Source: Saccharomycopsis phalli (lineage: Eukaryota; Ascomycota; Saccharomycetes; Ascoideales; Saccharomycopsidaceae). From it: 64,000 nucleotides of DNA. The position numbers were made by a program, and so were the translations under genes. Where the stretch lies: contig CP073213.1 of assembly GCA_020342235.1 (NCBI GenBank), positions 102,501-166,500 on the forward strand, in the 5' to 3' direction. Shown piece by piece: positions 20,094 to 48,907 of the stretch (positions within the stretch are counted from its first letter, which is position 1; every line of letters starts with the position of its first letter). The notes beneath the pieces are model-generated. The model was not told the origin of the DNA, searched no databases, and saw only the letters and a program-made list of their open reading frames with translations.

Positions 20094-21918
20094 ATGTCTA
20101 CTGCTACACCACCAGCAACTCCGTTGACTACAGCGGCGGGGAACTCGATTACTTACGTAACGTATGTCTTGTTGTTGGCATTTGGGGTCGGGGTTGCCTT
20201 TTGGGGTAACAACTCGAAATCGTCCTTCTTGTCGGCCAACAAGACCCAGACGGCGATTCCGTTGGCGCTTAATTTCATTGCATCAGGTTAGTATTGGCAT
20301 TGCAAGTGTTTTTCTATTTATATCTTTTTATTCCAGGTGTGTGCTTACAATAATTGCGGGTGCCGTACTTTATGGCTGAGATTATACCGTATGTTACTCG
20401 ATCAAGTTAGTACTTGCGAGAGGAATATTATTGTATATAATTGGAGAAGGGAGTTTGACATACTTCCTTTCTTTAGTTAGCTACTAACGTCCAGGTACCG
20501 GTGCCGGTATTCTCACAACTTATACCCAAGTCGCAAACGTCTCGGGGCTCCATGGGTTGCTTGTCTACTGCTTGTCTGGTTGCTTGCCAATGTTCATCTT
20601 TGCATGGCTCGGCCCGGTTATCCGTAGACAGTGTCCTGAGGGTTTTGTCTTGACTGAGTGGTGCCGCCAGCGGTTTGGAAAAATCACCGGCTGGGCGCTC
20701 TCTGCTGCCACAGTTTTGACATTGTTCTTGTTTATGATTGGTGAACTTTCGGCGGTGTACTTTGCCATCAACACTCTTGCAGGTATCAACGGGGTTCCTG
20801 CAGTTATTATCGAGTGTGTGGTCACCAGTATTTACACGTCCATCGGTGGGTTCAAGGTCAGTTTCATCACCGACAACATCCAGGCTTTGTTTGTGACCCT
20901 CTTGTTGGTCATTGGAAGCTGTGCTGTTGGCGGATATGTCCACATTGACCCGTCGATCGACAAGACCCCAATGTTGAAAGCCAATCTCCTTGGATGGAAA
21001 TTGCTCTACATTCTTCCCGTGGCCATTTTCACCAATGACTGTTTCTTGGCTGCATTCTGGTTGCGGACGTTTGCCTCCAAGACCGACCGTGATTTGCTCA
21101 TTGGTTGCAGCATCGCCTGTGTGTTTTTGTTCATCTATCCGTTTGTGATTGGTTTCACTGCCATCATTGCCGTGTGGAATGGAACTGTGCAAATGGGCGA
21201 CGATGCTGTCACCAATGCGTTCTTCTACGTCGTGGCCACTTGTCCAAAGTGGGTCAACGGTTTGATCTTGATCTTCACCGTGGTGTTAAGTACCTGTACG
21301 TTTGACTCGCTTCAATCGTCCATGGTCTCGACCCTCTCCAACGATCTTTTCCAAAACAAGTTAAAGTTGATCTACATCCGTGTATCGGTTGTTATTGTTA
21401 TTATCCCAGCAGTTGTTATTGCCCTCAAGGCCGCTAACGACGTGCTCCAGATTTACTTAATTGCCGACTTGCTCTCGGCTTGTGTGATTCCAATCTTGTT
21501 CCTTGGCCTCTCGTCGAAATTCTGGTTCCTTACCGGATGGGAGATCATCATGGGCAGTCTTGGCGGATTCTTCTCGGTGTTTGTCTTTGGCGCGATATAC
21601 TTCAATTCTGCCTTGGAGGGCGGGAAGTTGTTGATTGTCACCAACGGTGTCTACGCTGACGATTGGTCTACCTTTGGTGCGTTCTGTGTCGCTCCAGGAT
21701 TCAGTTTGGTGGTCGGGTTCTTGACCTTGGCCATCCGGGCTGGTGTTCTCAAGGCACTTGCGTACCACAAGGGAGACCCTTCGATCTTTGACGATGCTTT
21801 TGACCGATCAAAGCACCACTTTGATTACCGTCCAAAGGTTGTCGAAGAGGATGATGTCGCTGCCCAAGAGTCTCGTGATGAGGCGACCTCGGACAAGTCA
21901 AAGACGGCTATCTATTAG
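20094..21918 (+). CDS. sodium:solute symporter family transporter (Dur3/Dur31-like), one intron
   Basis: A predicted plasma-membrane permease of about 538 residues in the SSF family, whose yeast members (Dur3, Candida Dur31 type) move urea and/or polyamines. Exon 1 is 20094-20286 and exon 2 is 20495-21918. The join across a 208-nt intron (donor GTTAGT, branch TACTAAC, acceptor CAG six bases later) gives PLALNFIASGTGAGILTTY, matching the conserved ALNFIASGLGSGIL of Dur3. Conserved pieces follow: LPMFIFAWLGPVIRRQCPEGFVLTEW and IGGFKVSFITDNIQALF. Hydropathy shows about 13 membrane helices. It is shorter than Dur3 (735 residues). The acidic C-terminal tail is cytosolic. A second donor/acceptor pair inside the intron would include a segment with an early stop. 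Substrate is not determined. Confidence 0.88.
20287..20494 (+). other. intron of the symporter gene with possible internal cassette
   Basis: GTTAGT...TACTAACGTCCAG, 208 nt and much longer than the other introns. Internally, TATTCCAG at about 20330-20337 and GTATGT at about 20390 could define an extra 52-nt exon whose inclusion in this frame meets a TGA, so it would act as a poison exon if used. Confidence 0.6.
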
Positions 21919-22889
21919 CATTTGACTCACTGCGCGGATTGACGTCTTTGTCCTTCTGTTGAACTCTACATGTATGTGTCTGATTTTTTCTTCCTTTTCT
22001 CTATATAGTCCATAGATGTAATAATTTTTATTTCCTCATGTATTGGATTGGCATTTAACCTGCCTTTGAATAATAAAAGAGTGATGACATGATCCTTAGG
22101 TATAGGCTGAGTAAAGGAGATTGGTATTTCCTCCAGAGGATATGCATCATTATAAAAGTGACAGTCCTGGTATAAAAGACTTGATTATGATTTAGAGGAG
22201 TAATTGTAGAGTCATGGATCTTGAAAAAAGAAGATTGTCATGTAGTGGACCGGAAAGTAATCTCTTTGTACGCAGATTTCATGAGTTTCATCGTCTCTTG
22301 AATGAAAAGTTTTAATGGGATTCTCGATTTGACCCTTGATACCATCTGACTAGACCATTCATTGCCCATGAGATAAAAGATGGAGTGAAAATGAGATCAT
22401 CAGAAAGAAAAGTAATGAGAGTGATAATGTCGTGGTTAACAACCACGGCAGAATAGGTCTAGTATTCAAGGAGGAGTTCGGAGTAGCTTACCGGACTCAG
22501 CCACAGAATACAGTAGCGCGTCCGTCGATCAATGGTAACCACCATCTGATTAAAGGACAACAACCTCTTAGGAGGATCGGCGTTCTCTATAAGAAGGCCG
22601 ACATTACGCTACAAACAAAAACGATCACAAGACCAATTCAGCTGGATATCTATATCTAGCACAACCCATTCCGGTTATCCAAATCCTAAAGGAACAAAAC
22701 AAACAATTAAGTAGTTTATAGTTTGCTGTAATACTATGTCTAATCAGGATACACCTATAAACTACGACAGATAAAAACCAGTCAATAAGTTCAAACCCCT
22801 ATTTTACAACTACCTTGATATTACAGTTTGTACAAAATATTCACCAAATGTTTAGAATGTGCTCTTTACCACAAAATGACCTCTTTATT
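21919..22889. other. intergenic region, no gene seen
   Basis: This AT-rich stretch has no supported gene. It contains a small perfect inverted repeat CGTGGTTAACAACCACG at about 22432-22448. Small open frames (for example 22432-22659) show no coding character. Confidence 0.55.
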
Positions 22890-23058
22890 CCAGTCAACCA
22901 TGTATGTTGAGTGCACTTATCAGCAGTACTGCAAAGAATTACTCCTACCTCTCTTTCTATATCAAAAAATACATTGATTTAATTGGCTCTGTCACATTGA
23001 TTTTATTGTTACTATTTACTATCACAATATCCTTCATTTAGACCCGCTAAATCAAGTT

Positions 23059-24051
23059 TCATTCACAATGTTCATGATAACCTCGGAAACAGTAATCAAT
23101 GTCACCCAACGACTTAACGTTAGCTACACATTCGCCCTCAGCCGCCTTTCCTGTTACTGTCACTTCTCTTGGCTCTAATGTAAGATCCTTACTCAGGATT
23201 GGACCAGAACCTTTGAGTGTGTAGTGAGTAAACACCTCTTTAATCATACAATAATGCTTACCGCTATGCTTGTGGTCAAGAATTGATCCTTTGACTTGTA
23301 AGTTTGTGAATTTTTCAAGCTGAGCCTTAAACTCTTCCTTACTGTAAATCTTGTTAAGGTCAAACGTTTCTCTAAGTTTCTTATCGTCGCGAATTTCTTC
23401 TCCGTCAAAAAAGAAATTATGGACCGCTGTAACGTAGTCGAGGGTAATTGCTCTTCGAAGCGAGTCGGTTTCTCCATCCCGAACTCTTTCGGAAAATGTC
23501 TTGATCTGAGCTGGTGACATTTGATTCTTATCCTTTAATCCTTCCAACATGTTATAATCATTGTTTGTATTCCATGGGACGTTCTGGTTGTAGCATTCCA
23601 GTTTCAATGATGTGAAACTGTCTACATTGCGAATAATCTGCTCTTGTGGGGTTTTATGGCGTATACAGGTCCAGTAAAAAACCCACACAGCATTCCAAAT
23701 TGATGATTGCTGCGGGAACAATTTCCGGATTTGAGGCACAGGCAGAAATCTTGGACTGATAGCAGTCTTTTGCGTTGGACCAGTCCATAATCCACGGATG
23801 TTTAACGGTTCGTAGGAGTTCGGATAGTCGTACGCAAGCACCACATCACGGACCTCTTCGTTTTGACAATAATCTGGTGCATCCAATAGCCGAGTTATAT
23901 CAGGGGCATAAGAATTTGTTAATTTAGCGGACGTGAGTAATTGATCGATATCGGGGTGGGGATTGACGGGAGGACCATTGACTGGTGATGCAAGGCCAAA
24001 CTCCGTAAAGAGCACGGCTAAAAGGATTTGGAAGACGGTTAAAGTGTTCAT
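23059..24051 (-). CDS. secreted RNase T2-fold protein without recognisable catalytic motifs, copy A
   Basis: A protein of 330 residues with a signal peptide (MNTLTVFQILLAVLFTEFGLA|SPVNG). Although not annotated by any obvious motif at first sight, the order of elements follows RNase T2. VRDVVLAYDYP matches the first core strand, LNIRGLWTG the CAS I block (family FTIHGLWPD), and SSIWNAVWVFYWTC the CAS II block (family W-HEW-KHGTC). Then comes TLDYVTAVHNFFFDG (helix after CAS II), IYSKEEFKAQLEKF (family TYTLSEIEAAL), and YCMIKEVFTHYTLKGSGPI (family L.EVWYYF.VKGS). The catalytic histidines and lysine of both blocks are absent and about 85 residues are inserted between CAS II and the helix. A pseudoenzyme or repurposed binding protein is inferred; no function is known to me. 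Confidence 0.7.
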   Translation of the reverse strand: MNTLTVFQILLAVLFTEFGLASPVNGPPVNPHPDIDQLLTSAKLTNSYAPDITRLLDAPDYCQNEEVRDVVLAYDYPNSYEPLNIRGLWTGPTQKTAISPRFLPVPQIRKLFPQQSSIWNAVWVFYWTCIRHKTPQEQIIRNVDSFTSLKLECYNQNVPWNTNNDYNMLEGLKDKNQMSPAQIKTFSERVRDGETDSLRRAITLDYVTAVHNFFFDGEEIRDDKKLRETFDLNKIYSKEEFKAQLEKFTNLQVKGSILDHKHSGKHYCMIKEVFTHYTLKGSGPILSKDLTLEPREVTVTGKAAEGECVANVKSLGDIDYCFRGYHEHCE

Positions 24052-24100
24052 TGATGATTACAAGTGGGTGGATACGATTATTATATATTGGTCCAGTTAC

Positions 24101-24172
24101 GTGCCTTGGATATTATTCGTGCCTTGGATATTATTCGTGCTTTGGATATTATTCGTGCCTTGGATACTATTC
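24101..24172. repeat. four tandem 18-bp units in the copy A promoter
   Basis: GTGCCTTGGATATTATTC occurs at 24101, 24119, 24137 and 24155 with one or no changes. The paralogous promoter (about 32570-32595, opposite strand) has a single unit, so the expansion is specific to copy A. It lies 50-120 bp upstream of the copy A start. Confidence 0.92.
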
Positions 24173-24235
24173 ATGCCTCATGCGGATGTCATTTCAAAGT
24201 TAATGTCAGTTTCAAATTTCCACAGGCAGTCTTAA

Positions 24236-25176
24236 TTTAGGCATTTCTCAAGGCGACAAAATATTGATGTACCTGCATTGGTGATCACTATAGCACGGTT
24301 AATTGTTCTTTAATCGATACTTCTATTTAGTGAAGTACTAGCAAAATCACGGTTAACTGTGATCAACTCGAGGTCCGTCATCGAATGTAAGTGAAATCCA
24401 GTGATGGACCTCGAATTTACGGGGCCACTTTAGGTTGTTGGTGGGTTGTTGGTGAGTTGTTGGCAAAAGTATCAGTGAGTAACAGTGTTGTGTCAGTCAC
24501 AATGCACGAATTACAGCCATAATATATGTATAATGATGTACTAACAAAAAACCTCAGACTGTGATCAAACATAAGGAAAAACTTAATACGTAAATACGGC
24601 CCACAATATTAAATAAATAATATTGTAGGTTCGGAGAACAGAACTATCAGTAGTTACTATAACAATTATACGTTGTTCCAATCGATACCGTAATATACAT
24701 TCTTTATATAAAATTCTGAAGTCAATATTTTAGAGGCAGTAAATCCCTCTTATAAGGCATTATAGGTAGGGTAATACTGCTCCATCCGGTTGCAACCACA
24801 TCATCAATAATGGTTACGAGACCAAGAACTCTGATAGGATAAGTACATTTCACCAATGTACGTCATATAATAATATATATATAAATTTGCTCCCCGATTT
24901 AGTGGACCTCCTGTCCTTTAAATACTAATTGTTGATTGCTTCTCTTTCTTCCTTTCATCCTGCGTTGCAGCTGTGTATCATGAGTACCCTCTGAACACAA
25001 CCTTGATTATTCGTCACATACGTAGTATTTACGTCATCCAGTGTCATTCAGAAAGGAGCATGGTGTTTATGTGCTGTCCAGCTGGTATATTACATAATTT
25101 TAAATTCTTATGGAGGTGCTTGGTAATTGCTGTGATTTGGAGCCAATGCATGTCCAAGCCAGGAGCAAAAAAGAAA
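24236..25176. other. gene-free region upstream of TRP2 and tRNA-Lys
   Basis: No gene is supported. An imperfect inverted repeat (TCGAGGTCCGTCA at about 24368 and TGATGGACCTCGA at about 24403) could form a hairpin or be a paired binding site. From about 24440 to 25000 the sequence, which has a TATATATATAAATT and lies beside a tRNA gene, is AT-rich and could be an old solo LTR, but I found no terminal repeats to prove it. Confidence 0.5.
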
Positions 25177-25249
25177 AGCCCAATGCGGGGCTCGAACCCG
25201 CAACCTTTCGATTAAGAGTCGAATGCACTACCGATTGTGCTAACTAGGC
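25177..25249 (-). tRNA. tRNA-Lys(CUU)
   Basis: The minus strand reads GCCTAGT for the acceptor 5' side, pairing with ATTGGGC. The D arm contains GCAC...GTGC. The anticodon stem TTCGA/TCGAA encloses loop CTCTTAA, anticodon CTT. The T arm is GCGGG-TTCGAGC-CCCGC. There is no intron. A T-rich Pol III terminator (TTTTCTTTTTT) follows directly on the minus strand. The A box (TAGTTAGCACAATCGG) and B box (GGTTCGAGCCC) are intact. Confidence 0.97.
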
Positions 25250-25299
25250 TCCTTGAAAACCAAATTCTCCACATTGCTAGATGAGACGGTCGCCGCATA

Positions 25300-25317
25300 C
25301 ACGTGACTGCTCACGTG
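25300..25317. promoter_or_regulatory. paired CACGTG motifs upstream of TRP2
   Basis: CACGTGAC at 25300 and TCACGTGA at 25311 lie 12 bp apart, 45-63 bp before the TRP2 ATG and just beyond the tRNA-Lys 5' end. This is the strongest Cbf1-like site in the window. Confidence 0.6.
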
Positions 25318-25362
25318 ATACCAGTAGATTGGAATTTTTTTGCGTTAGTCATTTACATCACC

Positions 25363-26940
25363 ATGGCACAACCTAGTTTGGATCACTTGGTTTCGCTTAT
25401 TGAGGCTGATCGGCTCAAGTTCTCCGAGGAGGATGTTCCTAACTTGTACCCAGTATTCCGCTATGTGTTGAACGACGAGCTTTCGCCGTTGCTTGCGTAC
25501 CTCAAGCTTTCCAATCAAGACAACCGCATCAATTGCGGCAAAAAGTCGCCGTCATTCCTATTTGAGAGTGCACGGCATGGCAACCAGGTTGACCGGTACT
25601 CTTTCATTGGTGTGAAGCCACACAAGTCGATCCGAACGGGAGAAAAGGGCACGTTGGGTCCAAGAAAAGAGAATGAGATTATTGGCGAGGACGTGGACCC
25701 ATTGACGTTGTTGGAGAAGGAGCTCAATGCGTTTCGGCAGGCGCAATTGCCTGGAGTGCCTAAGCTCAGCGGAGGAGCCATTGGGTACATTTCGTACGAC
25801 TGTATCAAGTATTTTGAGCCAAAGACCAAGCGGGAGTTGAAGGACGTGCTCCGGCTTCCTGAGAGCTACCTCATGCTCTTTGATATGGTTGTTGCGTACG
25901 ACAATGTGTTCCAGCGGTTCCAGATCATCAACAACGTTGCTGTCACTGCGCAAGACACGCGGGAAACCATCCGCGAGAAGTACCAGCGGGTAACGCTGGA
26001 GATTGATCTCGTGACGTCGGTGTTGATGGAAGACCGGGTTACGTTTCCCGAGCAGGCGCCGATTGTGCAGGGGCAGACGTTCACGTCCAACATTGGGCAG
26101 GAGGGCTACGAGAATCACGTGCGCGAGTTGAAGAAGCACATTCTCAAGGGGGACATTATCCAGGCGGTTCCGTCGCAGCGGATTGCCCGGCCAACGAGCC
26201 TCGACCCGTTCAATTTGTACCGGCACTTGCGTACGGTGAATCCGTCGCCGTACCTCTTCTACATTGACTACCAGGACTTTCAGATCATCGGAGCGTCGCC
26301 CGAACTTTTGGTGAAGTCGAACGCGGCAAACAAGGTGGTGACGCACCCGATCGCCGGCACAATCCGGCGCGGGAGCACAAAGCAGGAGGACGACTTGTTG
26401 GCCGCGGAGTTGAAGAGTTCGCTCAAGGACCGGGCTGAGCACATTATGTTGGTGGACTTGGCGCGGAACGACATCAACCGCGTGTGCGACCCGTTGACCA
26501 CGTCCGTCGACCGGCTTCTCACGGTGGAACGGTTTTCGCACGTGAGCCACTTGGTGTCGGAGGTCACGGGAACGTTGCGGCCGGACAAGACGCGCTTCGA
26601 CGCGTTCCGGTCGATTTTCCCCGCCGGCACGGTTTCCGGCGCGCCAAAGGTGCGTGCAATGGAGATCATCGGGCAGTTGGAGCAGGAAAAGCGGGGGGTG
26701 TATGCCGGAGCCGTCGGTCACTGGGGGTACGACGGCAAGACCATGGACACGTGTATTGCGTTGCGGACAATGGTGTATAAAGACGGGGTGGCGTACTTGC
26801 AAGCCGGCGGCGGGATTGTCTATGACAGCGATCCGTATGATGAGTATATTGAGACAATGAACAAGATGAAGGCGAATAATAATACTATATTGGAGGCCGA
26901 GAAGTTGTGGATGGAGAAGCAACGGGCTGGTGCAGAGTAG
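25363..26940 (+). CDS. TRP2: anthranilate synthase component I
   Basis: The chorismate-utilising large subunit of anthranilate synthase (chorismate + ammonia or glutamine to anthranilate), first committed step of tryptophan synthesis; 525 residues. The ATG at 25363 (MAQPSLDHLVSLIE) is preferred over the TTG/GTG extension. The N-terminal regulatory region has SFLFESARHGNQVDRYSF, corresponding to the LLES feedback site. The catalytic chorismate-binding domain shows KKHILKGDIIQAVPSQR, THPIAGTIRRG, DRAEHIMLVDLARND, SHVSHLVSEVTG, FPAGTVSGAPKVRAMEII and the C-terminal YLQAGGGIVYDSDPYDEY. Length compares with 507 in S. cerevisiae. The glutaminase partner (TRP3) is not in the window. The region is notably GC-rich at third positions relative to its surroundings. 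Confidence 0.98.
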   Translation: MAQPSLDHLVSLIEADRLKFSEEDVPNLYPVFRYVLNDELSPLLAYLKLSNQDNRINCGKKSPSFLFESARHGNQVDRYSFIGVKPHKSIRTGEKGTLGPRKENEIIGEDVDPLTLLEKELNAFRQAQLPGVPKLSGGAIGYISYDCIKYFEPKTKRELKDVLRLPESYLMLFDMVVAYDNVFQRFQIINNVAVTAQDTRETIREKYQRVTLEIDLVTSVLMEDRVTFPEQAPIVQGQTFTSNIGQEGYENHVRELKKHILKGDIIQAVPSQRIARPTSLDPFNLYRHLRTVNPSPYLFYIDYQDFQIIGASPELLVKSNAANKVVTHPIAGTIRRGSTKQEDDLLAAELKSSLKDRAEHIMLVDLARNDINRVCDPLTTSVDRLLTVERFSHVSHLVSEVTGTLRPDKTRFDAFRSIFPAGTVSGAPKVRAMEIIGQLEQEKRGVYAGAVGHWGYDGKTMDTCIALRTMVYKDGVAYLQAGGGIVYDSDPYDEYIETMNKMKANNNTILEAEKLWMEKQRAGAE

Positions 26941-27255
26941 TGTGGTGGAATAGACGATTGAAAATGTGTAGTGGGATGATGGCGTATTGCGTAGCAACCA
27001 ATCCAGGGTATTAATTAGATGGTTGTCGTATCAATTAAATGGCTGTATCAATTTACTGTGTAAAAAAAAAAGGGTTTTACATTTCTTTCTGAAGCTACAC
27101 TAATCCATTTAGTCCGTCACAAGTTTCTTGGCAACGCACCATTTCCACCCTTTTCAGCAATTATCCTAGTCTTGGCACCTTTGCTTCTTTTTATCCGTTT
27201 GATGATTCAGCTTTTCTGAAACCACCATTTTGAGGACAACCAATCCCAACAAGTA
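26941..27255. other. intergenic region between TRP2 and the LINE
   Basis: This stretch of about 315 bases holds the TRP2 3' UTR. At about 27060 an A10 tract followed by GGGTTTTACATTTC...AGCTACACTAATCC resembles AAAAAAGGGTTTTA...AGCTACGCTAATTAG at about 54617-54655, a weak dispersed repeat. Confidence 0.5.
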
Positions 27256-27508
27256 TTATAATAATAATTTTTATTTTTGTATTTAGCTATATATTGTCTC
27301 CGGCATTACGGTTATTCGACGAATATATTTTCACTCAGGAACATCCTGAGATAGCATTGCTATTGAAGGAAACCCTTTGTCAACCCTCACTTGGTTGCTT
27401 GGGATTAAAAACTTCAATGGGGGGCATTCATATTGTTGGTACTTAGTTTTTGTATTGATTGTAAGAAGCCTGGTCACTCTTGTTGTCGAATGTGACCGCT
27501 GAATCTTA

Positions 27509-30500
27509 TCATGTGTTGGAGGAATCATATTCCAACACGTTCTGGTAGAACTCAAGGAGTTTGTGGACTGATTTTTGGTTGGCAAACACTTTTCCAAGCG
27601 TATTGCGTATGCCATGAGTGGAATCTAGTATGTCGTCAATGCGTGATAGAATTCGAGCTTCTAAGAACTCTGGACATCGGAGGTCATGTATGATGGAGGG
27701 AGAGTGAATCCCGCATCTTTTGCACTTTGGGTCATCATTGCTAAATAATTTGAGCAACGATCCGTCTGTGAGGCTCTTTCCGCTGAGTAGTTGTGATGCC
27801 AAACTGAGGATTGCCTTGGGGCCTGCAAGCGCTTCCGTGAGGAGGAGCTTGGTTTTGTCTCGGTGCACTTTGATTGGCCTGGTGCTGATTTTGCGTGCGT
27901 TCCTATAGTGGTTTGGAAGTGAGTCACTGGTTGAGGTAACCATTTCCTGCCACTCTTTGGTAACTGTGTCTGAGGCCATTTTCTTGAGCAACTGGATGCG
28001 GGACCGCTGTATATCTTTTATCGGTGATGGGACGTCGTCGAGTCGTTGTTCTTCTAGTGCATAGTCAGCTCATTGTTCAAATAATCGGGCGACTGCATCA
28101 TACGTTCTGATATCTGGGTTGTGGGGGGCTGTTGCCTGTAACATTTCCTGGATAAGAGGACGTTTGGGAATTGTGATTCTCGTGTTTCCATTGATCGTGG
28201 TAGTTTGGAACAAACTTGAGCGGACTGGGTTTTGGCGTGATGTATTCATGATCCATCTCATGGATTTCATTAGTGCCAAGGACTTAAGTAGGATCGTTGG
28301 TGGTGGAATACCACTTTCGATATAGATGATCGGGGTGGACGTGGGTCTGAGGAGGCCTAGCGCCAGTCGTAGGATTGAGTTGAATATCACACTGACCTGA
28401 CCCCATTGGGTTTTTGTCATGCTGTTATAGAACACCTCGAGTCCATACGATATGAGGGGGACTGCGCACGTTTTGAACAATATTATCGTGGTACGTCCCG
28501 TGGTTCCTCGCGTCATTCGGCTTAAGTACCTTATTTGTTCAGCAGTACGGCGCATCTTGGATAATGTTTGTTTTAGATGGCTCCTGAAGCTGAGTCTTGA
28601 ATCAAGGGTAATGCCTAATAACTTGACCTCGTTTGTTTCCTCCTTTCGTCCTCCGTCCGGAAGTTGGAGGCTAGATTCACAGTTCGGTAACCGTCTTCGA
28701 TTCGGGAAGAATCGTATGTATTGTAGTTTCGGGCCATAGTCAAAGCTTGTAAAATTCTCTTGACCCCATTGATGGCATTCCTGTAAGCATCGTTGAAGTG
28801 TATGCTCAATGTCGCCTCGGGATCCCGTTTTGACAATTGTAATGTCATCAATGAATCCTAGGGCCACTGCCCCTTTCCGCTCAAGCCGGTTGTAGAGGTC
28901 GTGGGTGCAGATCATGAAGAGGATTGGAGAGATTGGAGAGCCTTGTGGGACACCGAACGTAACGGGGAGGTGCTGGTCTGATAACTGCCCATCAATTTTT
29001 AGCTGAGTACTTCGGTTCTGGAGGAAGTTATTAGTCCAATTAATTATCTCGGGTGGAGCGCCGACGGCCTGCATCTTTTGTAGTAGGATCGGGTGGCTCA
29101 TGTTGTTGAAGGCACCTTCAATGTCGACTAGGACTGCTCCGGAGTGGTTGGAGTTGTCTAGTGGCATTTTCTGGTTGTCCTTGAGGTGAGTCTGGGCGTG
29201 GACCTTGAGATTATTCACTAAGGTCGTAACCGCATCCGTTGCACAGTACCCTTTGCGCCCCCCAAATTGGTAAGATGGAAGTTGGATTTTAGCGACCAAT
29301 CTTTGGGTCATGATTGACTCGAAGATTTTCCCAAGTATATTGAGTAAGCTGATGGGACGAAATGATTTTGGTGTCTCATAATTGGCCTTTCCCGGTTTCG
29401 GGATTACTACCGTGATGCTAGTTTTCCACTGTTTGGGAAATGCTCCAAGTTTGAGGCACGCGTTGTAGATCAATTCCAACTGGTCAGGGAAGGTTTTCCC
29501 ATGCCAAAGCTCCCTGATTTGACCAACGGTGAGCTGGTCAGGACCTGGAGCTTTTTTGAGCTTTAGGTATCTGATGGTGTTGAATATTTCCTCCTTCGTT
29601 ATTGGTTCGATGTCGTCCCAATGAGTGTTGTGCGGTTGGAACGAAGCTGGCGTGAGGCTCTCACCTACAGTGATCTGTGGGTAAAAGGTTTTGCCAAAGG
29701 CTTCGTGTTGTTCCTCGTACAGTTTCATCATTCTATGGCGCTTTGCTGGGTTTGTGTATCTGTAAGCAGTCCAGATGGTGGTGTGGTCCAACTTGAGTAA
29801 GAAATCATTCCAGCACTTGGATTTGGCTTTTTGAACAGTTTCCTGAAAGGCCTTCTGAGCATTGCTTCGTTCTGGATCGTCCATTGCGAGGCTTGTGACA
29901 GTTCTATACGCGTCTTTGACTTCTTGAGTGAACCACCTTTTTGAGCGGCTATTTACTAGTTTCATCGGGGTGTTTCTGTCAATTAGTTGCCTTAGAGTCT
30001 GGGTTAACTTGGCGGATGCCTTGTTTAGTTCATCCTCTGTGTGGATGGCGCTTGCGAACCGACGTTTATCTAGTGTTGCACGTACCTTTGACCAGTCCGT
30101 TTTAGAGTAGTTATGCACCGTTTTTGGCTTGATCTTGTTCGACATGTCGGGAGGGCGGAGTGATACGCGAAGACCGAAGTGATCGGAGCCGAATTGTCGA
30201 AGCTTTGGCTGTGGTGACACTTGCCCTTCCAACTTATCGCTGATTAATATAACATCAAGAGTGTTACCGTCACGGTGTGTGGGCTGGTCTATGATGTTAA
30301 GGCATTGGAGTTTCCCCATTTCCATGATGTCATCGATCCTCATTGTGGCCTTCCGTGCTTTCACCCCTGCTATGTTGCGAGAGGTAAAGGCTGGGTGGGC
30401 TGCATTGAGGTCGCCCATGATAATTCCATTGAAAGTTCCTTGTTTATCTATAATGTAGTTTCTCACTAGTTTTAGCGACCGGGACTTGAGGTGGGCCTTG

Positions 30501-30862
30501 GAATCGTGCGGCGCATTGTAGATGTTGATGATGTCTACAACTTGCTTTCGTGATTCTAAGGTGATTCCCACACAGTCTCTGTCTTTTAATTCATTGATAT
30601 ACCTTGTGCGGTAGCCATATTGTTGATCTTTAATTTTCTTGTTAACATATGTCGTGGCCCTAGGTCGGGCTGACTGGTCGTTTACCTCAGGGAGGTAATC
30701 ATATTTGTCATAGGCGGCGTGGTTGCAAGTCTCATCGGGGTTGCACTGACGTGCAGTCTCCTGAACTAATAGTATAACTGCCGAATTCTTGTAATGGTCA
30801 AGGACCGCTTCTAGATGCGGCCTTCGTTTCTGGATGTTGATCGAGATGATTGTTATCTTCAT
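27509..30862 (-). pseudogene. LINE ORF2: endonuclease-reverse transcriptase, one in-frame stop
   Basis: Starts at 30862 with ATG overlapping the ORF1 stop (ATGA). The N-terminal APE-like endonuclease has ISINIQKR, LLVQETAR, IIMGDLNAAHPAF, NTLDVILISD and FGSDHFGLRV, so all catalytic blocks are intact. The reverse transcriptase follows with AVLVDIEGAFNNMSHP (motif A), VTFGVPQGSPISPILF (B) and LGFIDDITIV (C; FIDD instead of YADD or FADD). The thumb region contains TTIILFKTCAVPLISYGLE. After 930 codons a TGA at 28072-28070 interrupts; the same frame then continues 186 codons to 27509, including a C2HC finger (CKRCGIHSPSIIHDLRC) usual at LINE C-termini. A CGA-to-TGA transition would explain the stop. 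The 930-residue part may still be made. Confidence 0.9.
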
Positions 30863-32316
30863 TGTGATCCAACTTGGCTTGAGTCACTGTGGGAAACCAT
30901 CTGAGTTCGACTTGACCGTAGATTATATCTTGATGTCGAGTTCTCATCAGTAGCTGGGTAAGTCTCCGTCGTATTGATCACTAGATCTTTTGGGATCTTG
31001 GGTTGACTGGAGGGGTTACTCGTGGCTTTCGGGTTTCCCGGTGTGCCGCTTTGTGCGTTGGAAGCAGGGGTGATGGAAGATGGTTGGCTCGTTTTTGACT
31101 TGGAGCCGCGGCTTCGGCGTGGCCGTCGCGGTGACTCTTTGAGGAGGTCAAGGTGAGTCCGTTTCCGGATGTTGCGCTTTCCCTTGTACTCGGTTAGTCT
31201 GTGGATTTCTCCTTCGATGCAGTAGCGTTGTGCTGACGCGAATTGCGCTGTTGCCTCGTCAGGGAAGAATAACCGAGCTGAGTAGCGTTTTGTGCATTCG
31301 ATAGGGATCGTGGACCAATCCGGCATGTTTTCTGGGCTAATGAGTGGTCTTGGTGCTGAACACAAGGCTTCTCCTTCCCACTGCGCATTTCTTAAGGTTC
31401 TCGAAATTTCGAGTGCGACGTTGTCGGGGGAGAAGGTTGCTGGGACGTTTTGGATTACCCGTGAGACCCATGGTTTTGTGTTGAGTGGTCCTGGTGATCC
31501 GAGCGCAGATTGGAGTGTCAACTTGTTTTCGTCGGTGAAGGGTTCGTTTAGGTGGACCCAGAAGTGGTGCGCCGCGGTGAGGCTGATCATGCTGATCTTG
31601 CATGCCGACTGGTCAATGATGGCTTTGGACTCAACTTCGAATTGGATGCGTTTTGCAGCATCCCATGTTCGGCTTTGAGGATTAACGTAATACGCTAATC
31701 TACCAGCGGTTTCAAGGTCTTTGCCAGTTGGTCTTTGCTCCCGGGTTTTGGTTCTGGTTGCAGTGTGGCCACGTTTTGATGAGGTGGCCGGGGGTGCGAG
31801 GAATGCATGTTGGGTTTGTAGAAATTGAATGGCTTCCTCCTGTCCAGCTTGGCGGAGGAAGGTGGTTGAATCAAGTTTGTAAAACCGGGCGGCCCCAGAG
31901 ATTGCGTTAGTGAGTACTCCGTAGGCCTGTATAGCGTCACGAGCCCTGTCCTCAAATGTGTAATTTGAGTTCCCGCTTTGGGAGGGGTGGTCAGTTTCAT
32001 AAGGTTGGATAAGCTTTTCTTCGACGTTTTGTCGGTTCCAAGTTTGTGGGGGTGGCGAGATGGCACCCGGTGGGGTGTTGTATCCGCTTGTTTCGTGTTC
32101 TGAGGGGTCGGTTTCGTCCTCCTCGGTGAGGCCATAGGATTTTTTAATTTGGCCGTTGGTGTGTGTTGCTGGTGCCCTGGCGGCACTTGGGTCAATTTGA
32201 AGTTGGTTAATAGATTCGCCGTGGGAATCCATACGGCTTGCTGTTGTTTGGGGCCCTAGTGGGTCGCCCGGGGGTTCAAACTCATTTTGTGTTTCACCAA
32301 ATTGGGAAGAACTCAT
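30859..32316 (-). CDS. LINE ORF1 protein
   Basis: 485 residues from the ATG at 32316; the open frame extends further upstream only through a TTG. It is Gln/Thr/Pro-rich at the N-terminus and basic with RRPRRSRGSKSKTS near residue 400. A central segment (PWVSRVIQNVPATFSPDNVALEI...YSARLFFPDEATAQFA) resembles an RNA-recognition-type fold found in some LINE ORF1s. No CCHC knuckles are seen. It is presumed to bind LINE RNA and form the RNP. The stop TGA overlaps the ORF2 ATG, suggesting termination-reinitiation. Confidence 0.82.
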   Translation of the reverse strand: MSSSQFGETQNEFEPPGDPLGPQTTASRMDSHGESINQLQIDPSAARAPATHTNGQIKKSYGLTEEDETDPSEHETSGYNTPPGAISPPPQTWNRQNVEEKLIQPYETDHPSQSGNSNYTFEDRARDAIQAYGVLTNAISGAARFYKLDSTTFLRQAGQEEAIQFLQTQHAFLAPPATSSKRGHTATRTKTREQRPTGKDLETAGRLAYYVNPQSRTWDAAKRIQFEVESKAIIDQSACKISMISLTAAHHFWVHLNEPFTDENKLTLQSALGSPGPLNTKPWVSRVIQNVPATFSPDNVALEISRTLRNAQWEGEALCSAPRPLISPENMPDWSTIPIECTKRYSARLFFPDEATAQFASAQRYCIEGEIHRLTEYKGKRNIRKRTHLDLLKESPRRPRRSRGSKSKTSQPSSITPASNAQSGTPGNPKATSNPSSQPKIPKDLVINTTETYPATDENSTSRYNLRSSRTQMVSHSDSSQVGSQ

Positions 32317-32489
32317 TTTTTTTTGTATCGGTGGTGAGTCGTCTTCGAGTCGTATAATTGGCACTGCATACGTTTTAAACAAAATTATCGTGGTACACAA
32401 TATATATAGAGTTTATAATAAGACCATCATAGTCATTAACCACATATACCTATTTATAAACTCTGACATGACTAAATTGAGAGTGCCTC

Positions 32490-33830
32490 GATCATAAACT
32501 GTACGTGTGCCGTGGAAATCTGCAACTGCCATTAGCTTCAGCATGGCATCCGCATGAGACATGGATAATATCCAAGGCACGTAACTGGACTAATATATAA
32601 TAATCATATTCACCCACTTGTAATCATCAATGAACACTTTAGCCGTCTTCCAAATCCTTTTAGCCATGCTCTTTACGGAGTTTGGCCTTGCGTCACCAGT
32701 CAATGGTCGTCCCGTCAATGTTCCTCCCGTCAATGTTCCTCCCGTCAATGTTCCTCCCGTCGATCCCCAGCCCGATATCAACAAATTACTCAGAACCGCT
32801 AAATTAACATATTCTAGTTCCCCTAATATAACTCGGCTATTGGATGCACCAAAATATTGTCAAAACGAAGAGACCCGTGATGTGGTGCTTGCGTACGACT
32901 ATTGGTGTCCTAGAAAACCGCTCATCGTCCGTGGATTATGGGCTGATATAGAGGAAAAGACTGTCACCAGTCCTAGATTTCAGCCTGAAAAAATACTCTG
33001 GGCGTTGTTCCCAGAGCAATCATCAACTTGGAATGATCACTGGATTCACAATTGGGAACAACTAGACCATTTAAACGGACAAAAGCAGATTTTCCGCAAT
33101 GTTGACAGTTTCACATCATTGAAACTGGAATGCTACGACCGGAACGTCCCATGGTATACGAACGAAGATTATAACAAGTTGGACAGATTAAAGTATGAGG
33201 GCAAAATGACACCAGGTCAGAACAGAACATTTGCCGAGAGACTTCGGGATGGAGAAACCGACTCGCTTCAGAGAGCAATTGCCCTCGACTACATTACGGC
33301 GGTACATAATTTTTTCTATGATGGAAAAAGAATTCGTGACGAAAAGCAACTTACAACAACGTTTGAACTTGGTAAGATTTACACTAAGGAAGAGTTTAAA
33401 ACCCAGCTTGATACTTTTGACAACTTACAAGTCAATGGAAAAATCATTACTGGGGAAAACGGTAAGCCTCTTTGTATAGTTGACAAGGTGTTTACTCACT
33501 ATACACTCAAAGGTTCTGGTCCAATCATTAGTAAGAAACTTACATTAAAGCCAAGAAAAGTGACGGTAACTGGAAACGCAGCTAAGGGCGAATGTGTAGC
33601 TAACATTAAGTCGTTGAGTGACGTTGATTACTGTCTCCCAGATGGTTTTGGAGAATGCAAATGAAACTTGATTCAGCGGGTCTAAATGAAGGATATTGTG
33701 ATAGGAAATAGTAACAATAAAATCAATGTGACAGAGCCAATTAAATCAATGTATTTTTTGGTGTAGAAAGAGAGGTAGGAGTAATTCTTTGGGGTACTGT
33801 GACTAGTGTACTCAACATGCATGGTTGACT
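32490..33830 (+). repeat. inverted segmental duplication, arm B
   Basis: The counterpart of arm A (22890-24235) on the opposite strand. Homology runs from about 32490 (a degenerate match to the distal promoter) through the paralogous gene and its 3' UTR to CATGGTTGACTG at about 33828. There it stops abruptly at the ATT-repeat tail of an old LINE fragment, so that element inserted at, or defines, the duplication edge. Confidence 0.87.
32630..33664 (+). CDS. secreted RNase T2-fold protein without recognisable catalytic motifs, copy B
   Basis: A protein of 344 residues, paralogue of the copy at 23059-24051. The signal peptide is nearly identical (MNTLAVFQILLAMLFTEFGLA|SPVNG). A four-fold PVNV/PP repeat (15-bp units) follows, expanding the segment that is single in copy A. 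The RNase T2 layout is the same: RDVVLAYDYW, LIVRGLWAD, SSTWNDHWIHNW, ALDYITAVHNFFYDG, IYTKEEFKTQLDTF and KVFTHYTLKGSGPI. Catalytic blocks are replaced by unrelated residues and differ from copy A there, whereas the block RNVDSFTSLKLECY and the helix RDGETDSL are almost identical. Thus the former active-site region is the most divergent part. Function unknown; extracellular binding is a guess. Confidence 0.7.
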   Translation: MNTLAVFQILLAMLFTEFGLASPVNGRPVNVPPVNVPPVNVPPVDPQPDINKLLRTAKLTYSSSPNITRLLDAPKYCQNEETRDVVLAYDYWCPRKPLIVRGLWADIEEKTVTSPRFQPEKILWALFPEQSSTWNDHWIHNWEQLDHLNGQKQIFRNVDSFTSLKLECYDRNVPWYTNEDYNKLDRLKYEGKMTPGQNRTFAERLRDGETDSLQRAIALDYITAVHNFFYDGKRIRDEKQLTTTFELGKIYTKEEFKTQLDTFDNLQVNGKIITGENGKPLCIVDKVFTHYTLKGSGPIISKKLTLKPRKVTVTGNAAKGECVANIKSLSDVDYCLPDGFGECK

Positions 33831-33831
33831 G

Positions 33832-35110
33832 AAATAATAATAATATTTATTTAAGGCTATAGCTATACTAGTCTCCCAGAGCAGATTTATACTTTGCCGT
33901 CTACGACCAAGAACGACTATGTAGTCAAAAGAAAACTCTGCAACAGAGATAAAAACTTTCAACTTGAACTTGTGAATATATACAGTAATGGGCATTGGAG
34001 GGGTAATGAGCTTTTGCCTAGGACATTGGTGACTTGAGCCTCTCCCTCCCTAGGGTACTAGCACAGTAGCTCTCTTAATGTGCTGTAACAAACAAGAAAC
34101 TACCAATCCGGCACTGACGAGTACAATCCTAATAATAATAATAATAATATTTATTTTTGTATTTAGCTATATATTGTCTCCGGCAATACGGTTATTCGAC
34201 AGATATATTTTCACTCAGGAACATCCTGAGGCAGCATTGCTGTTGAAGAAAACCCTTTGTCAACCCTCACTGGGTTGCTTGGGATTAAAAACTTCAATGG
34301 GGGCGGTTATATTGTTGGTGCTTGGTGCTTGCATGGATTGTGTAAGAAGCCTGGTCACTCTTGTTGTCGAATGTGACCGCTGAATCTCATCATGTGTGGG
34401 AGGAATCATATTCCAACACGTTCTGGTAGAACTCAAGGAGTTTGTGGACTGATTTTTGGTCGGCAAACACTTTTCCAAGCGTATTGCGTATGCCATGAGT
34501 GGAATCTAATATGTCGTCAATGCGCGATAAAATTCGAGCTTCTAAGAGCTCTGGGCATCGTAAGTCATGTATGATGGAGGGGGAGTGAATTCCGCATCTT
34601 TTGCACTTGGGGTCATCGTTGCCAAATAATTTGAGCAACGATCCGTCTGTGAGGCTCTTTCCGCTGAGTAGTTGTGATGCCAAACTGAGGATTGCCTTGG
34701 GGCCTGCAAGCGCTTCCGTGAGGAGGAGCTTGGTTTTGTCTCGGTGCACTTTGAACTGACTGGTGCTGATTGTGGAGTACAATCCTAAAAGATTTTAAGC
34801 TTCGCCTTATCTGAGAAATAGACACGAGCTTGAGTAGCATTGGTAATTCCTTTGCGTATCTGTTCCTGGGCTCAAAAGACCAAGAATGCCGGGCAGGTAA
34901 AGTCGTGGAAGGTGGATTTCTCGGTATCCTCACATCTGTTGCATAATGGGTTAGCCTCGGCATTAAATAAAGTCTTTATTTTATGTGAAACTAGGCTTTG
35001 GCCGCTTTACAAGGTAATACAACATGATTCCTCGCCACACAATGAGTACAGCTCACAAATTTCCAAATGGAAAGGCCGCCAGATCTCTTTAATAACCTCA
35101 TGAAGTACCA
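33832..35110 (-). mobile_element. old LINE family 2, 3' end, interrupted by a family 1 copy
   Basis: Read on the minus strand, about 34960-34860 encodes a LINE-type C2HC finger (LCNRCEDTEKSTFHDFTCP) followed by degenerate frame and a 3' UTR that continues at 34118-33835. It ends CTAGTATAGCTATAGCC then an ATT-rich tail. The same 3' UTR occurs at 54.6-54.9 kb, and its terminal motif recurs at 45.3, 50.6 and 58.6 kb. A 5'-truncated family 1 LINE (34133-34774) with perfect target duplications splits it. The reading frame is multiply disrupted, so this is an old relic. Confidence 0.75.
34133..34774 (-). mobile_element. 5'-truncated LINE family 1 copy with 14-bp target duplication
   Basis: It matches the 3' part of the LINE at 27.3 kb very closely: the 3' UTR, an ATT-repeat tail, and the ORF2 C-terminus including CKRCGIHSPSIIHDLRC. 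It begins mid-ORF2 (at KVHRDKTK). GAGTACAATCCTAA flanks it exactly at 34119-34132 and 34775-34788, a 14-bp target-site duplication. Few differences from the near-complete copy point to a young insertion. Confidence 0.92.
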
Positions 35111-47501: not shown

Positions 47502-48800
47502 TCACTCCATGCTGTGATCCATCTGGCTCAAGAAATCGTTATCTTCCAAAGTATTGAGTCCAAACCCATCATCATCCATAAAAACTGGCAAATCCTGGTT
47601 AAAGACCTCATTACCCATTGAGAGGGTATTTGCCAGGTACCCAAATGGGATTTTGCCGTCAGGGCCGGGCATCATAGAACCCTGCGTTGGATATGGCATC
47701 TGATGTTGTAACTGCGCTTGTTGCGCTTGTTGTGCTTGCTGAGCTTGCTGAGCTTGCTGCATCTGACGTACCTGCTGCTGTTGTACCTGCTGCTGTTGTA
47801 CCTGCTGCTGTTGTACCTGCTGTTGTTGTACTTGATGTTGTTGCACTTGATGTTGTGGTACTTGATGCTGTGGCACTTGATGCTGCGGCACTTGATGTTG
47901 CGGTACTTGGTGTTGTGGTACTTGATGCTGTTGTACTTGATGCTGTTGTACTTGATGTTGCTGTACTTGATGTTGCTGTACTTGATGTTGCTGTTGCTGT
48001 TGCTGTTGCTGTGCCTGTTGCTGTGCCTGCTGTTGCTGTTGCTGTGCCTGTTGCGCCTGTTGCTGCTGCTGCTGCGCTTGTTTCCGCTGCTGCTCTTCCT
48101 GCTCTCTCTGTAACCGCTGTTGCTCAAGACGACGGCGCATCTCCTCCTCCTGCTGCAACTGTTGCCGCCGCTCTTCTTCCTTGCGTCGCTCCAATTCTTG
48201 CCTCAACTCCTCTTGCCGCTGGTACCATCCTGGTGGTGCCTCGTTGTAATCCTTGGGCCGCAACTTTGCGATTCTCTTTTGCGCGTACCTTCTCTCACGG
48301 ACCCTCTTGCTGGAGCTCTTTTGGAACTCCTCGATTGCCTTCTCCACATCCGCATGCCGCTCGGCAGACTCAGGCTCGTCAAACGATAGTTTCAACTTCT
48401 TCACGAGCCCCTGCTTCTGCTCGGCGCTTGGGGCTGCGTTCTCCAATGCAGAAATATCCCGTGCCTTGGCGTCGGCCTCGGCCTTGACACGCAGCAAGTT
48501 CCCCACCCAGAGGTTTTGGGCAGGGTCCAAGTCCGCAGAAGGATATGCACTTGGCGGGACAACAAGCGCCAACGGCACATTCTTCTCAAGCACGACCTCA
48601 AGGAGCTCCTGGTTACGGATGAACCGGCCTGCGGTTGAATGCCGGAAGCTCATGATGTCGGTCTCGTCATGAACGCTGATACCCGGCTGGCGGATGATCG
48701 CGCCAGGTTTCTGTGGCATCTGCTGGTGCACTACGCGAGGCGCGTTATACACCGGCTTGCCGTTGTATCGAGGCATTTTTCGCTGTTTGATGACGTTCAT
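47502..48800 (-). CDS. SNF6: SWI/SNF chromatin-remodelling subunit Snf6, glutamine-rich
   Basis: 432 residues from ATG 48800. This start gives MNVIKQRKMPRYNGK, paralleling yeast Snf6 MGVIKKKR; another ATG at 48842 is possible. The key match is VHDETDIMSFRHS, equivalent to Snf6 IHDESDTISFRSN, followed by a conserved linker and NEAPPGWYQRQEELRQELERRKEE (yeast REAPADYWTHAYRD...). A very long polyglutamine/HQVQ and HQVP repeat region covers about residues 225-370. The acidic C-terminus (DDDGFGLNTLEDNDFL) parallels the yeast acidic tail. It is a nuclear subunit of the SWI/SNF remodeller. Divergent from RPB5 with about 107 bp between starts. Orthology is inferred from remembered yeast sequence. Confidence 0.75.
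   Translation of the reverse strand: MNVIKQRKMPRYNGKPVYNAPRVVHQQMPQKPGAIIRQPGISVHDETDIMSFRHSTAGRFIRNQELLEVVLEKNVPLALVVPPSAYPSADLDPAQNLWVGNLLRVKAEADAKARDISALENAAPSAEQKQGLVKKLKLSFDEPESAERHADVEKAIEEFQKSSSKRVRERRYAQKRIAKLRPKDYNEAPPGWYQRQEELRQELERRKEEERRQQLQQEEEMRRRLEQQRLQREQEEQQRKQAQQQQQQAQQAQQQQQQAQQQAQQQQQQQQHQVQQHQVQQHQVQQHQVQQHQVPQHQVPQHQVPQHQVPQHQVPQHQVQQHQVQQQQVQQQQVQQQQVQQQQVRQMQQAQQAQQAQQAQQAQLQHQMPYPTQGSMMPGPDGKIPFGYLANTLSMGNEVFNQDLPVFMDDDGFGLNTLEDNDFLSQMDHSME
47700..48075. repeat. CAG/CAA-rich minisatellite inside SNF6
   Basis: Repeats of CAA-CAT-CAA-GTA type (15-bp units on the minus strand giving HQVQQ/HQVPQ) plus CAACAG runs. They occupy over a quarter of the gene, a likely site of length polymorphism. 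Confidence 0.92.
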
Positions 48801-48907
48801 TTGGTACTCCCTCAAACGGGACGCGACCTGGAAACTTTTCATGTATGATCCGGGTAACTGTGCAGCAAAAATTTGAAAAATTGCACATTGCAGGAGGCAC
48901 ACACGCA

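What the first reader, a model, noticed from the sequence alone, without database searches (positions are those of the whole stretch)
22890..33830. Paired secreted RNase T2-fold pseudoenzymes in an inverted duplication
Seen: two paralogous secreted proteins (23059-24051 and 32630-33664) keep RNase T2 core order (VVLAYDY, RGLW, the W...W block, EEFKAQL, HYTLKGSG) yet lack the catalytic His/Lys/Glu residues of both active-site blocks. The two copies differ from each other most in that former active-site region and are near-identical in flanking blocks such as RNVDSFTSLKLECY. Known: active fungal RNase T2 uses CAS I/CAS II histidines. Inferred: a novel family of secreted non-catalytic RNase T2 relatives with a diversifying face; role unknown.
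Basis: partly seen in the sequence, partly recalled or inferred. Interest (0 to 1): 0.78.

Follow-up and report, generated by a model that had tools for sequence, protein, structure and literature searches.

The report
Secreted dead-ribonuclease family in a yeast
The two genes belong to a sixty-strong family of secreted yeast proteins that appear to descend from an RNA-cutting enzyme; this pair has lost the cutting residues, other members still keep them, and several branches are changing so fast that selection seems to favour change.

Summary
Both ORFs lie at the stated coordinates, and their T2-type catalytic residues are replaced: CAS I His by Arg, CAS II Glu/Lys/His by Gln/Arg/Asn. RNase T2 ancestry is supported by profile comparison of the whole family (score 67.7; 40 permuted controls reach at most 22.3), and the only PDB matches of the family profile are the T2 enzyme Actibind. 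It is not confirmed by a structure model, which failed (pLDDT 36.5).

The interpretation needs three corrections. (1) A and B are 2 of 60 loci in this CUG-Ser yeast genome, 49 of them intact. (2) The family is not non-catalytic as a whole: 15 of 49 keep both histidines and 7 of 49 keep His/Glu/Lys/His; A and B sit in a four-gene branch that lost all four. (3) They are not a young local inverted duplication: A's nearest relative is on another contig and B's is 54 kb away.

Mature domains evolve with gene-wide omega above 1 in 4 of 8 branches tested, while signal peptides stay conserved; LINE elements lie beside family clusters more often than chance. Best explanation: secreted T2-derived proteins retooled for fast-changing extracellular binding, as RALPH pseudo-RNases were from T1-type RNases. 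The function itself is inferred.

The parts
23059..24051 (-). Gene A: secreted RNase T2-derived protein, 330 aa, catalytic residues lost (R/Q/R/N)
23989..24051 (-). Signal peptide of A, MNTLTVFQILLAVLFTEFGLA; pattern shared across the family (by inspection, no signal-peptide predictor was used)
23785..23799 (-). CAS I remnant of A: IRGLW (the three T2 enzymes of this genome: IHGLW, LHGLW, IHGAW)
23626..23643 (-). CAS II remnant of A: EQIIRN (T2: HEFNKH, aligned so that Q=Glu, R=Lys, N=His positions)
32630..33664 (+). Gene B: secreted RNase T2-derived protein, 344 aa, catalytic residues lost (R/Q/R/N); extra VPPVN repeats after the signal peptide
32630..32692 (+). Signal peptide of B, MNTLAVFQILLAMLFTEFGLA (by inspection)
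32927..32941 (+). CAS I remnant of B: VRGLW
33083..33100 (+). CAS II remnant of B: KQIFRN
22885..24223 (-). Unit around A homologous to that around B (inverted); homology to L002 continues to about 480 bp upstream of the ATG
32512..33837 (+). Unit around B homologous to that around A
27255..32316 (-). LINE-type retrotransposon lying directly upstream of B: first ORF 30859-32316 (no Pfam match), endonuclease-reverse transcriptase ORF 28070-30862, 3' tail taken to end near 27255 from the repeat with the second fragment; the 5' end was not mapped
34135..34794 (-). Second LINE fragment (3' end only) downstream of B, 94-95% identical to the first over the matched blocks; its far end was not mapped

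Best explanation
A and B are secreted proteins of a lineage-expanded family that descends from a fungal RNase T2. Shown by computation: T2 ancestry of the family at profile level; replacement of both catalytic histidines and of the Glu and Lys in A and B; retained signal peptides and a cysteine frame; protein-changing substitution above the neutral rate in several branches; spread over seven contigs, often beside LINE elements. Inferred: A and B fold like RNase T2, are exported, do not cleave RNA, and act stoichiometrically by binding a target outside the cell through a remodelled former active-site face and other surfaces. The target is most likely a molecule of another organism (competitor, predator or host) or of a rival strain, because mature domains are under diversifying selection while the export signal is kept. 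Members that keep His/Glu/Lys/His may still be ribonucleases.
For: T2 ancestry: hhalign of 48 members against the genome's three T2 enzymes gives probability 95.6%, E 1.1e-8, score 67.7 against 40 column-permuted T2 alignments with mean 13.7, maximum 22.3, and 15.7 for reversed T2. The 34 members left after removing the 14 most distant ones score 48.0 (their permuted maximum 24.6) and the 14 score 56.7 (19.2). hmmsearch of PDB at E up to 10 returns only the two Actibind sequences, best E 0.0013 with all 48 and 0.00075 with the 14, aligning CAS I, CAS II and the CY after it. Catalytic loss: R/Q/R/N in all 4 of the window branch; changing both histidines of yeast Rny1 (H87F, H160F) abolishes tRNA cleavage but not growth inhibition (PMC3400635, passages). 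Selection: gene-wide omega on the mature part about 2.6, 2.0, 2.0 and 1.6 in four branches (p 2.6e-6, 2.6e-5, 4.9e-4, 0.0021) and about 1.3 in the window branch (p 0.03); five LINE ORF copies of the same genome give dN/dS of about 0.13-0.41. Signal peptide mean pairwise identity 58% vs 28% in the mature part. Maintenance: 49 of 60 loci intact. LINE association: 8 of 38 family clusters within 5 kb of a LINE vs 1.6 expected, p 0.0002.
Against: No usable structure model (pLDDT 36.5). The window branch alone does not match T2, nor does A alone. Only 1 of 48 members touches Pfam Ribonuclease_T2, at E 0.025, far below the cut-off. Omega is below 1 in two of the eight branches and about 1 in another, and some pairs lie clearly below 1 (for example L006-L008); the window branch's p 0.03 does not survive correction for eight tests. 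The LINE test rests on a partial LINE list (49 of 236 candidates scored). No expression, secretion or binding data. Neither the species nor its ecology is known here.
Confidence: 0.6

Rival explanations
1. Relaxed decay: the family began as extracellular RNases for phosphate or nucleotide scavenging, and surplus copies such as A and B are drifting toward pseudogenes without any function.
For: 11 of 60 loci are broken or fragments as read without introns. CAS II Glu, Lys and His change at least 9, 8 and 7 times on the tree. Omega of the window branch is close to 1.
Against: Omega significantly above 1 in four branches cannot come from relaxation. Cysteines C62, C153, C268 and C308 are invariant in 49 of 49, and C321 and C329 are kept in 48 of 49. 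Signal peptides are conserved, and the ORFs of A, B, L002 and L003 are all intact.
Confidence: 0.2
2. A and B remain ribonucleases that use other residues than the classical pair.
For: Basic or polar residues (R, N) stand at the histidine positions.
Against: Both histidine positions, the Glu and the Lys are all replaced in 4 of 4 of the branch. Loss of the two histidines abolished tRNA cleavage by Rny1 (PMC3400635, passages).
Confidence: 0.07
3. A special case of the best explanation: the family mixes active secreted RNases used against rivals with catalytically dead relatives that act as decoys, immunity factors or recognition markers for them.
For: Seven of 49 members keep His/Glu/Lys/His while 12 of 49 keep neither histidine, all in one genome. 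Omega exceeds 1 in both kinds of branch: all three genes of c048 and of c049 keep both histidines; those of c027 and c025 lack the CAS I histidine.
Against: No pairing of active and dead genes was tested; no interaction data. c048 lacks the CAS II Glu and Lys, so keeping the histidines need not mean activity.
Confidence: 0.2
4. Not T2-related: short chance resemblances to RGLW and to a W-rich block.
For: No Pfam match for A or B; no T2 match for A alone in PDB; window branch alone not significant.
Against: Whole-family profile score of 67.7 against a permuted maximum of 22.3. The only PDB matches are a T2 enzyme, with Glu, Lys, His and the following Cys-Tyr in register.
Confidence: 0.05

Closest known systems
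Fungal RNase T2 enzymes (Actibind 3d3z/3tbj, RNase Rh 1bol, yeast Rny1; Pfam PF00445)
   Same: Signal peptide; CAS I followed by CAS II and a Cys-Tyr in the same order; 11 residues from the CAS II His position to that Cys both in the T2 enzyme L033 and in A. Actibind is the only PDB match of the family profile.
   Different: A and B lack the catalytic His/Glu/Lys/His and the CAS II cysteine; they fall below the Pfam cut-off. A longer middle region and a different C-terminal cysteine arrangement are read from the alignments, not from a structure.
RALPH effectors of powdery mildew (CSEP0064/BEC1054)
   Same: Large secreted set in one fungal genome with an RNase-like fold and lost catalytic residues, proposed to be pseudoenzymes (PMC6464244, passages read).
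   Different: RALPHs are of the T1-type fold and come from a plant parasite; this family is of T2 type and still contains members with a full catalytic set.
Catalysis-independent actions of T2 proteins (ACTIBIND, human RNASET2, Rny1-ci)
   Same: T2 proteins without RNase activity still bind actin or inhibit growth (PMC4294338 and PMC3400635, passages read), so the fold can work as a binding protein.
   Different: Those proteins have active natural forms; A and B are inactive by residue content, by inference. Actin binding was not testable here.

Membership tests
RNase T2 (PF00445) | Detectable homology to T2 enzymes | tested here: met
   Family profile: hhalign E 1.1e-8 with controls; hmmsearch PDB E 0.0013. 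Not significant for the four-gene branch alone or for A alone.
RNase T2 (PF00445) | Pfam score above the curated cut-off | tested here: not met
   0 families for A and B; 1 of 48 members matches at E 0.025
RNase T2 (PF00445) | CAS I histidine | tested here: not met
   Arg in A and B; His in 15 of 49 family members
RNase T2 (PF00445) | CAS II Glu, Lys and His | tested here: not met
   Gln, Arg, Asn in A and B; all four catalytic residues, CAS I His included, kept in 7 of 49 members
RNase T2 (PF00445) | Three-dimensional T2 fold | tested here: inconclusive
   AlphaFold2 with two rows gave pLDDT 36.5; no fold search was run on it
RNase T2 (PF00445) | Ribonuclease activity | not testable with these tools
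   needs purified protein
RALPH pseudo-RNase effectors | T1/F1-type RNase fold | tested here: not met
   By sequence only: the PDB profile searches returned the two Actibind (T2) sequences and nothing else
RALPH pseudo-RNase effectors | Large secreted family in one genome with lost catalytic residues | tested here: met
   60 loci, 49 intact, 34 of 49 without the CAS I His
Rny1-type vacuolar RNase T2 | Fungal C-terminal domain (PF25488) | tested here: not met
   Absent from A and B; present in the genome's own L031

The most novel reading that the evidence does not exclude
A free-standing yeast arms-race arsenal: one RNase T2 gene was amplified to about sixty secreted, LINE-associated copies in which active-type RNases and fully dead pseudo-RNases coexist under diversifying selection and act against, or protect from, other cells. 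It would be a T2-based parallel to RALPH effectors, in a budding yeast.
Probability: 0.3. Interest if true: 0.82.

Novelty: new variant of a known kind. Interest (0 to 1): 0.62.

Why it matters
A sixty-locus secreted family with gene-wide omega above 1 would, to my knowledge (recalled), be unusual for a budding yeast. Here one genome holds members ranging from a complete catalytic set to complete loss, so the route from enzyme to binding protein can be read branch by branch. It would extend to the T2 fold and to a yeast the idea, met here for T1-type RALPHs of a plant parasite, that dead RNases are recruited as secreted interaction proteins. It also gives a direct test of whether catalysis-independent activity of T2 proteins can be selected for in nature.

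Tried and rejected
AlphaFold2 on the two window proteins gave pLDDT 36.5; the tool admits only window sequences or loci from named tools, so no deeper alignment was sent and the second job was not used. No fold search was run, because the model is too poor.

A search of the prokaryote genome collection for T2 kin of the yeast enzymes matched 28 stretches and confirmed none. A search of plasmids with A found nothing. NCBIfam gave nothing for A and only a weak match for B (ribonuclease HI, E 0.2).

Young local inverted duplication: rejected by the tree and by DNA homology of A to L002 and of B to L003. mRNA retroposition by the LINE was considered and is not supported for A/L002, because homology extends about 480 bp upstream of the ATG. 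The standard genetic code was rejected: CTG makes up 5 of 269 apparent Leu codons in the first 22 residues against 174 of 1332 elsewhere (46 genes: the 48 aligned ones minus the two window copies), actin uses no CTG, and CTG stands in serine contexts (by inspection).

Species identity was not established; two papers on related yeasts (PMC9234493 and PMC12359140, passages) did not settle it. Literature: nine searches showed no paper on such a family in their listings (at most 20 titles each); the library holds open-licence papers only.

Dropped rows: 11 broken or fragmentary loci were left out of alignment, tree and selection tests; they were judged without regard to introns. One member (L052) was at first taken for a fragment because my fetch cut it; L071 shows it intact, so counts are 48. 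Selection tests used 8 branches that I chose, 26 of 49 genes. In the LINE test, 55 of the 57 matches were entered (the two left out lie inside an entered cluster), itself scored 49 of 236 candidates, and one family locus was entered as two starts (61 entries for 60 loci; clusters unaffected).

Full report
What is in the window. The window is contig C2:102501-166500 of a 14.15 Mb genome in 8 contigs, GC 45%. CTG is read as serine: it supplies 5 of 269 apparent leucine codons in the first 22 residues of family members but 174 of 1332 in the rest (46 genes), actin uses none, and in window genes it stands in serine contexts (by inspection). So this is a CUG-Ser yeast; the species was not identified. 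Later work uses table 12. Gene A (23059-24051, minus) and gene B (32630-33664, plus) are intact and 65% identical. Between them lie a tRNA-Lys, a chorismate-binding anthranilate synthase gene (25363-26940) and a LINE-type element.

A sixty-locus family. Searches of the genome with A and B found 69 and 67 matching stretches, which I group into 60 loci on contigs C1 to C7, none on C8. Forty-nine have an uninterrupted reading frame of at least 320 aa starting at ATG (48, plus L071); 11 are broken or fragments as read without introns. The members share an N-terminal MN..IF..LLALLFLE...A signal, except L060, a lone distant member with a different N-terminus. Mean pairwise identity is 58% in residues 1-22 and 28% in the mature part (48 members). 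Y206, W127, G255, F146 and cysteines 62, 153, 268 and 308 are invariant in 49 of 49, and C321 and C329 are kept in 48 of 49.

Ancestry. No member reaches the Pfam cut-off for Ribonuclease_T2; 1 of 48 touches it at E 0.025, and A alone finds no T2 enzyme in PDB. Profile methods do connect the family. The 48-member alignment against the genome's own three T2 enzymes (L031-L033) gives hhalign probability 95.6%, E 1.1e-8. The score is 67.7, against mean 13.7 and maximum 22.3 for 40 column-permuted T2 alignments and 15.7 for the reversed T2. The 34 members left after removing the 14 most distant ones still score 48.0 (permuted maximum 24.6), the 14 score 56.7 (19.2); the four-gene window branch alone scores 18.7, not significant (all). 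Searched against PDB sequences at E up to 10, the family profile hits only the two sequences of Actibind, a fungal T2 enzyme, at E 0.0013, and the 14-member profile does the same at 0.00075. The printed alignment puts the family's E-x2-K-H on the Glu, Lys and His of CAS II and the family's C153-Y154 on the Cys-Tyr that follows. In L033 the distance from that His to that Cys is 11 residues, as in A. In the RNase Rh row these residues number E105, K108, H109 and C120 by my count; that Rh C120 pairs with C19 is recalled.

Catalytic residues. Over 49 intact members the CAS I position is His in 15, the CAS II Glu is kept in 25, the Lys in 16 and the His in 37; 15 keep both histidines, 12 neither, and 7 keep all four (L049, L050, L051, L057, L060, L062, L071). 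A, B, L002 and L003 read R, Q, R, N. Fourteen of the 15 with both histidines lie in the distant group; the fifteenth, L020, lies in the 19-gene branch that also holds A and B, is 36% identical to A and reads H, E, R, H. On the tree the minimal number of changes is 3, 9, 8 and 7 for the four positions. In yeast Rny1, replacing both histidines (H87F, H160F) removes tRNA cleavage while growth inhibition on overexpression remains (PMC3400635, passages). I therefore take A and B as non-catalytic, by inference from residues; no activity was measured.

The pair is not a local duplication. In the tree of 48 members (4 catalytic columns left out) A joins L002 on contig C4 (support 100/98), B joins L003 at C2:80760 (100/99), and the four form one branch (100/100). 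DNA homology agrees: A and L002 are 90% identical over 1.5 kb, with a further 213 bp upstream at 96%, and B and L003 are 86% identical over 1.3 kb.

LINE association. LINE 3' fragments lie beside B, L002 and L003. Genome-wide, 8 of 38 family clusters have a LINE match within 5 kb, against 1.6 expected by circular shift (p 0.0002), and 9 and 12 of 38 within 10 and 20 kb. The LINE list is partial: 49 of 236 candidates were scored with the reverse-transcriptase protein, so short 3' fragments are not counted. This suggests, but does not show, that LINE copies promoted duplication; shared insertion preference is an alternative.

How it probably works. Export signals and the cysteine frame are kept, the catalytic centre is lost in some branches, and protein change is favoured. 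That combination fits secreted proteins that bind a changing partner stoichiometrically. T2 proteins without RNase activity are known to act by binding: truncated human RNASET2 binds actin (PMC4294338, passages). Powdery mildew RALPHs are a large secreted set of T1-type pseudo-RNases; for one of them shielding of host ribosomes was proposed (PMC6464244, passages). Whether the partner here is a host, predator, competitor or rival strain cannot be told without the species and its ecology.

Limits. No structure, expression or activity data; no sister genome; the AlphaFold2 model failed (pLDDT 36.5). Nine literature searches showed no report of this family in their listings, in a library of open-licence papers only.

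Noticed in passing
28070-30862 and 27509-27979 (minus): The window's LINE reverse-transcriptase frame stops at codon 931, whereas five other copies have open frames of 1124 aa; LINE-like coding continues beyond the stop.
   Followed up: partly
window and G000:C1-C8: LINE matches occur at 57 stretches at least (49 of 236 candidates scored) in at least two subfamilies (about 98% and about 52% identical to the window copy), several near contig ends.
   Followed up: partly
24100-24171: Four tandem copies of an 18-bp unit (CGTGCCTTGGATATTATT) just upstream of A; the element recurs upstream of L002 and, once, of B. The 7-mer AAGGCAC occurs in 17 upstream regions against 0.38 expected (42 regions before near-duplicates were dropped, the exact remainder was not printed), so it may be a shared promoter element or simply common descent.
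   Followed up: partly
25176-25250: tRNA-Lys (anticodon ctt) between A and the anthranilate synthase gene.
   Followed up: no
20590-21918: Sodium:solute symporter frame of 442 aa, looks short for a urea-permease-type carrier (recalled length); start not examined.
   Followed up: no
47502-48842 (minus): Protein with a long Gln-rich tract containing repeated QHQVQ/QHQVP units.
   Followed up: no
L020 (G000:C5:1381957-1382946): Its CAS I position reads His inside a branch where its sisters read Gln: either a regained histidine or several independent losses around it.
   Followed up: no
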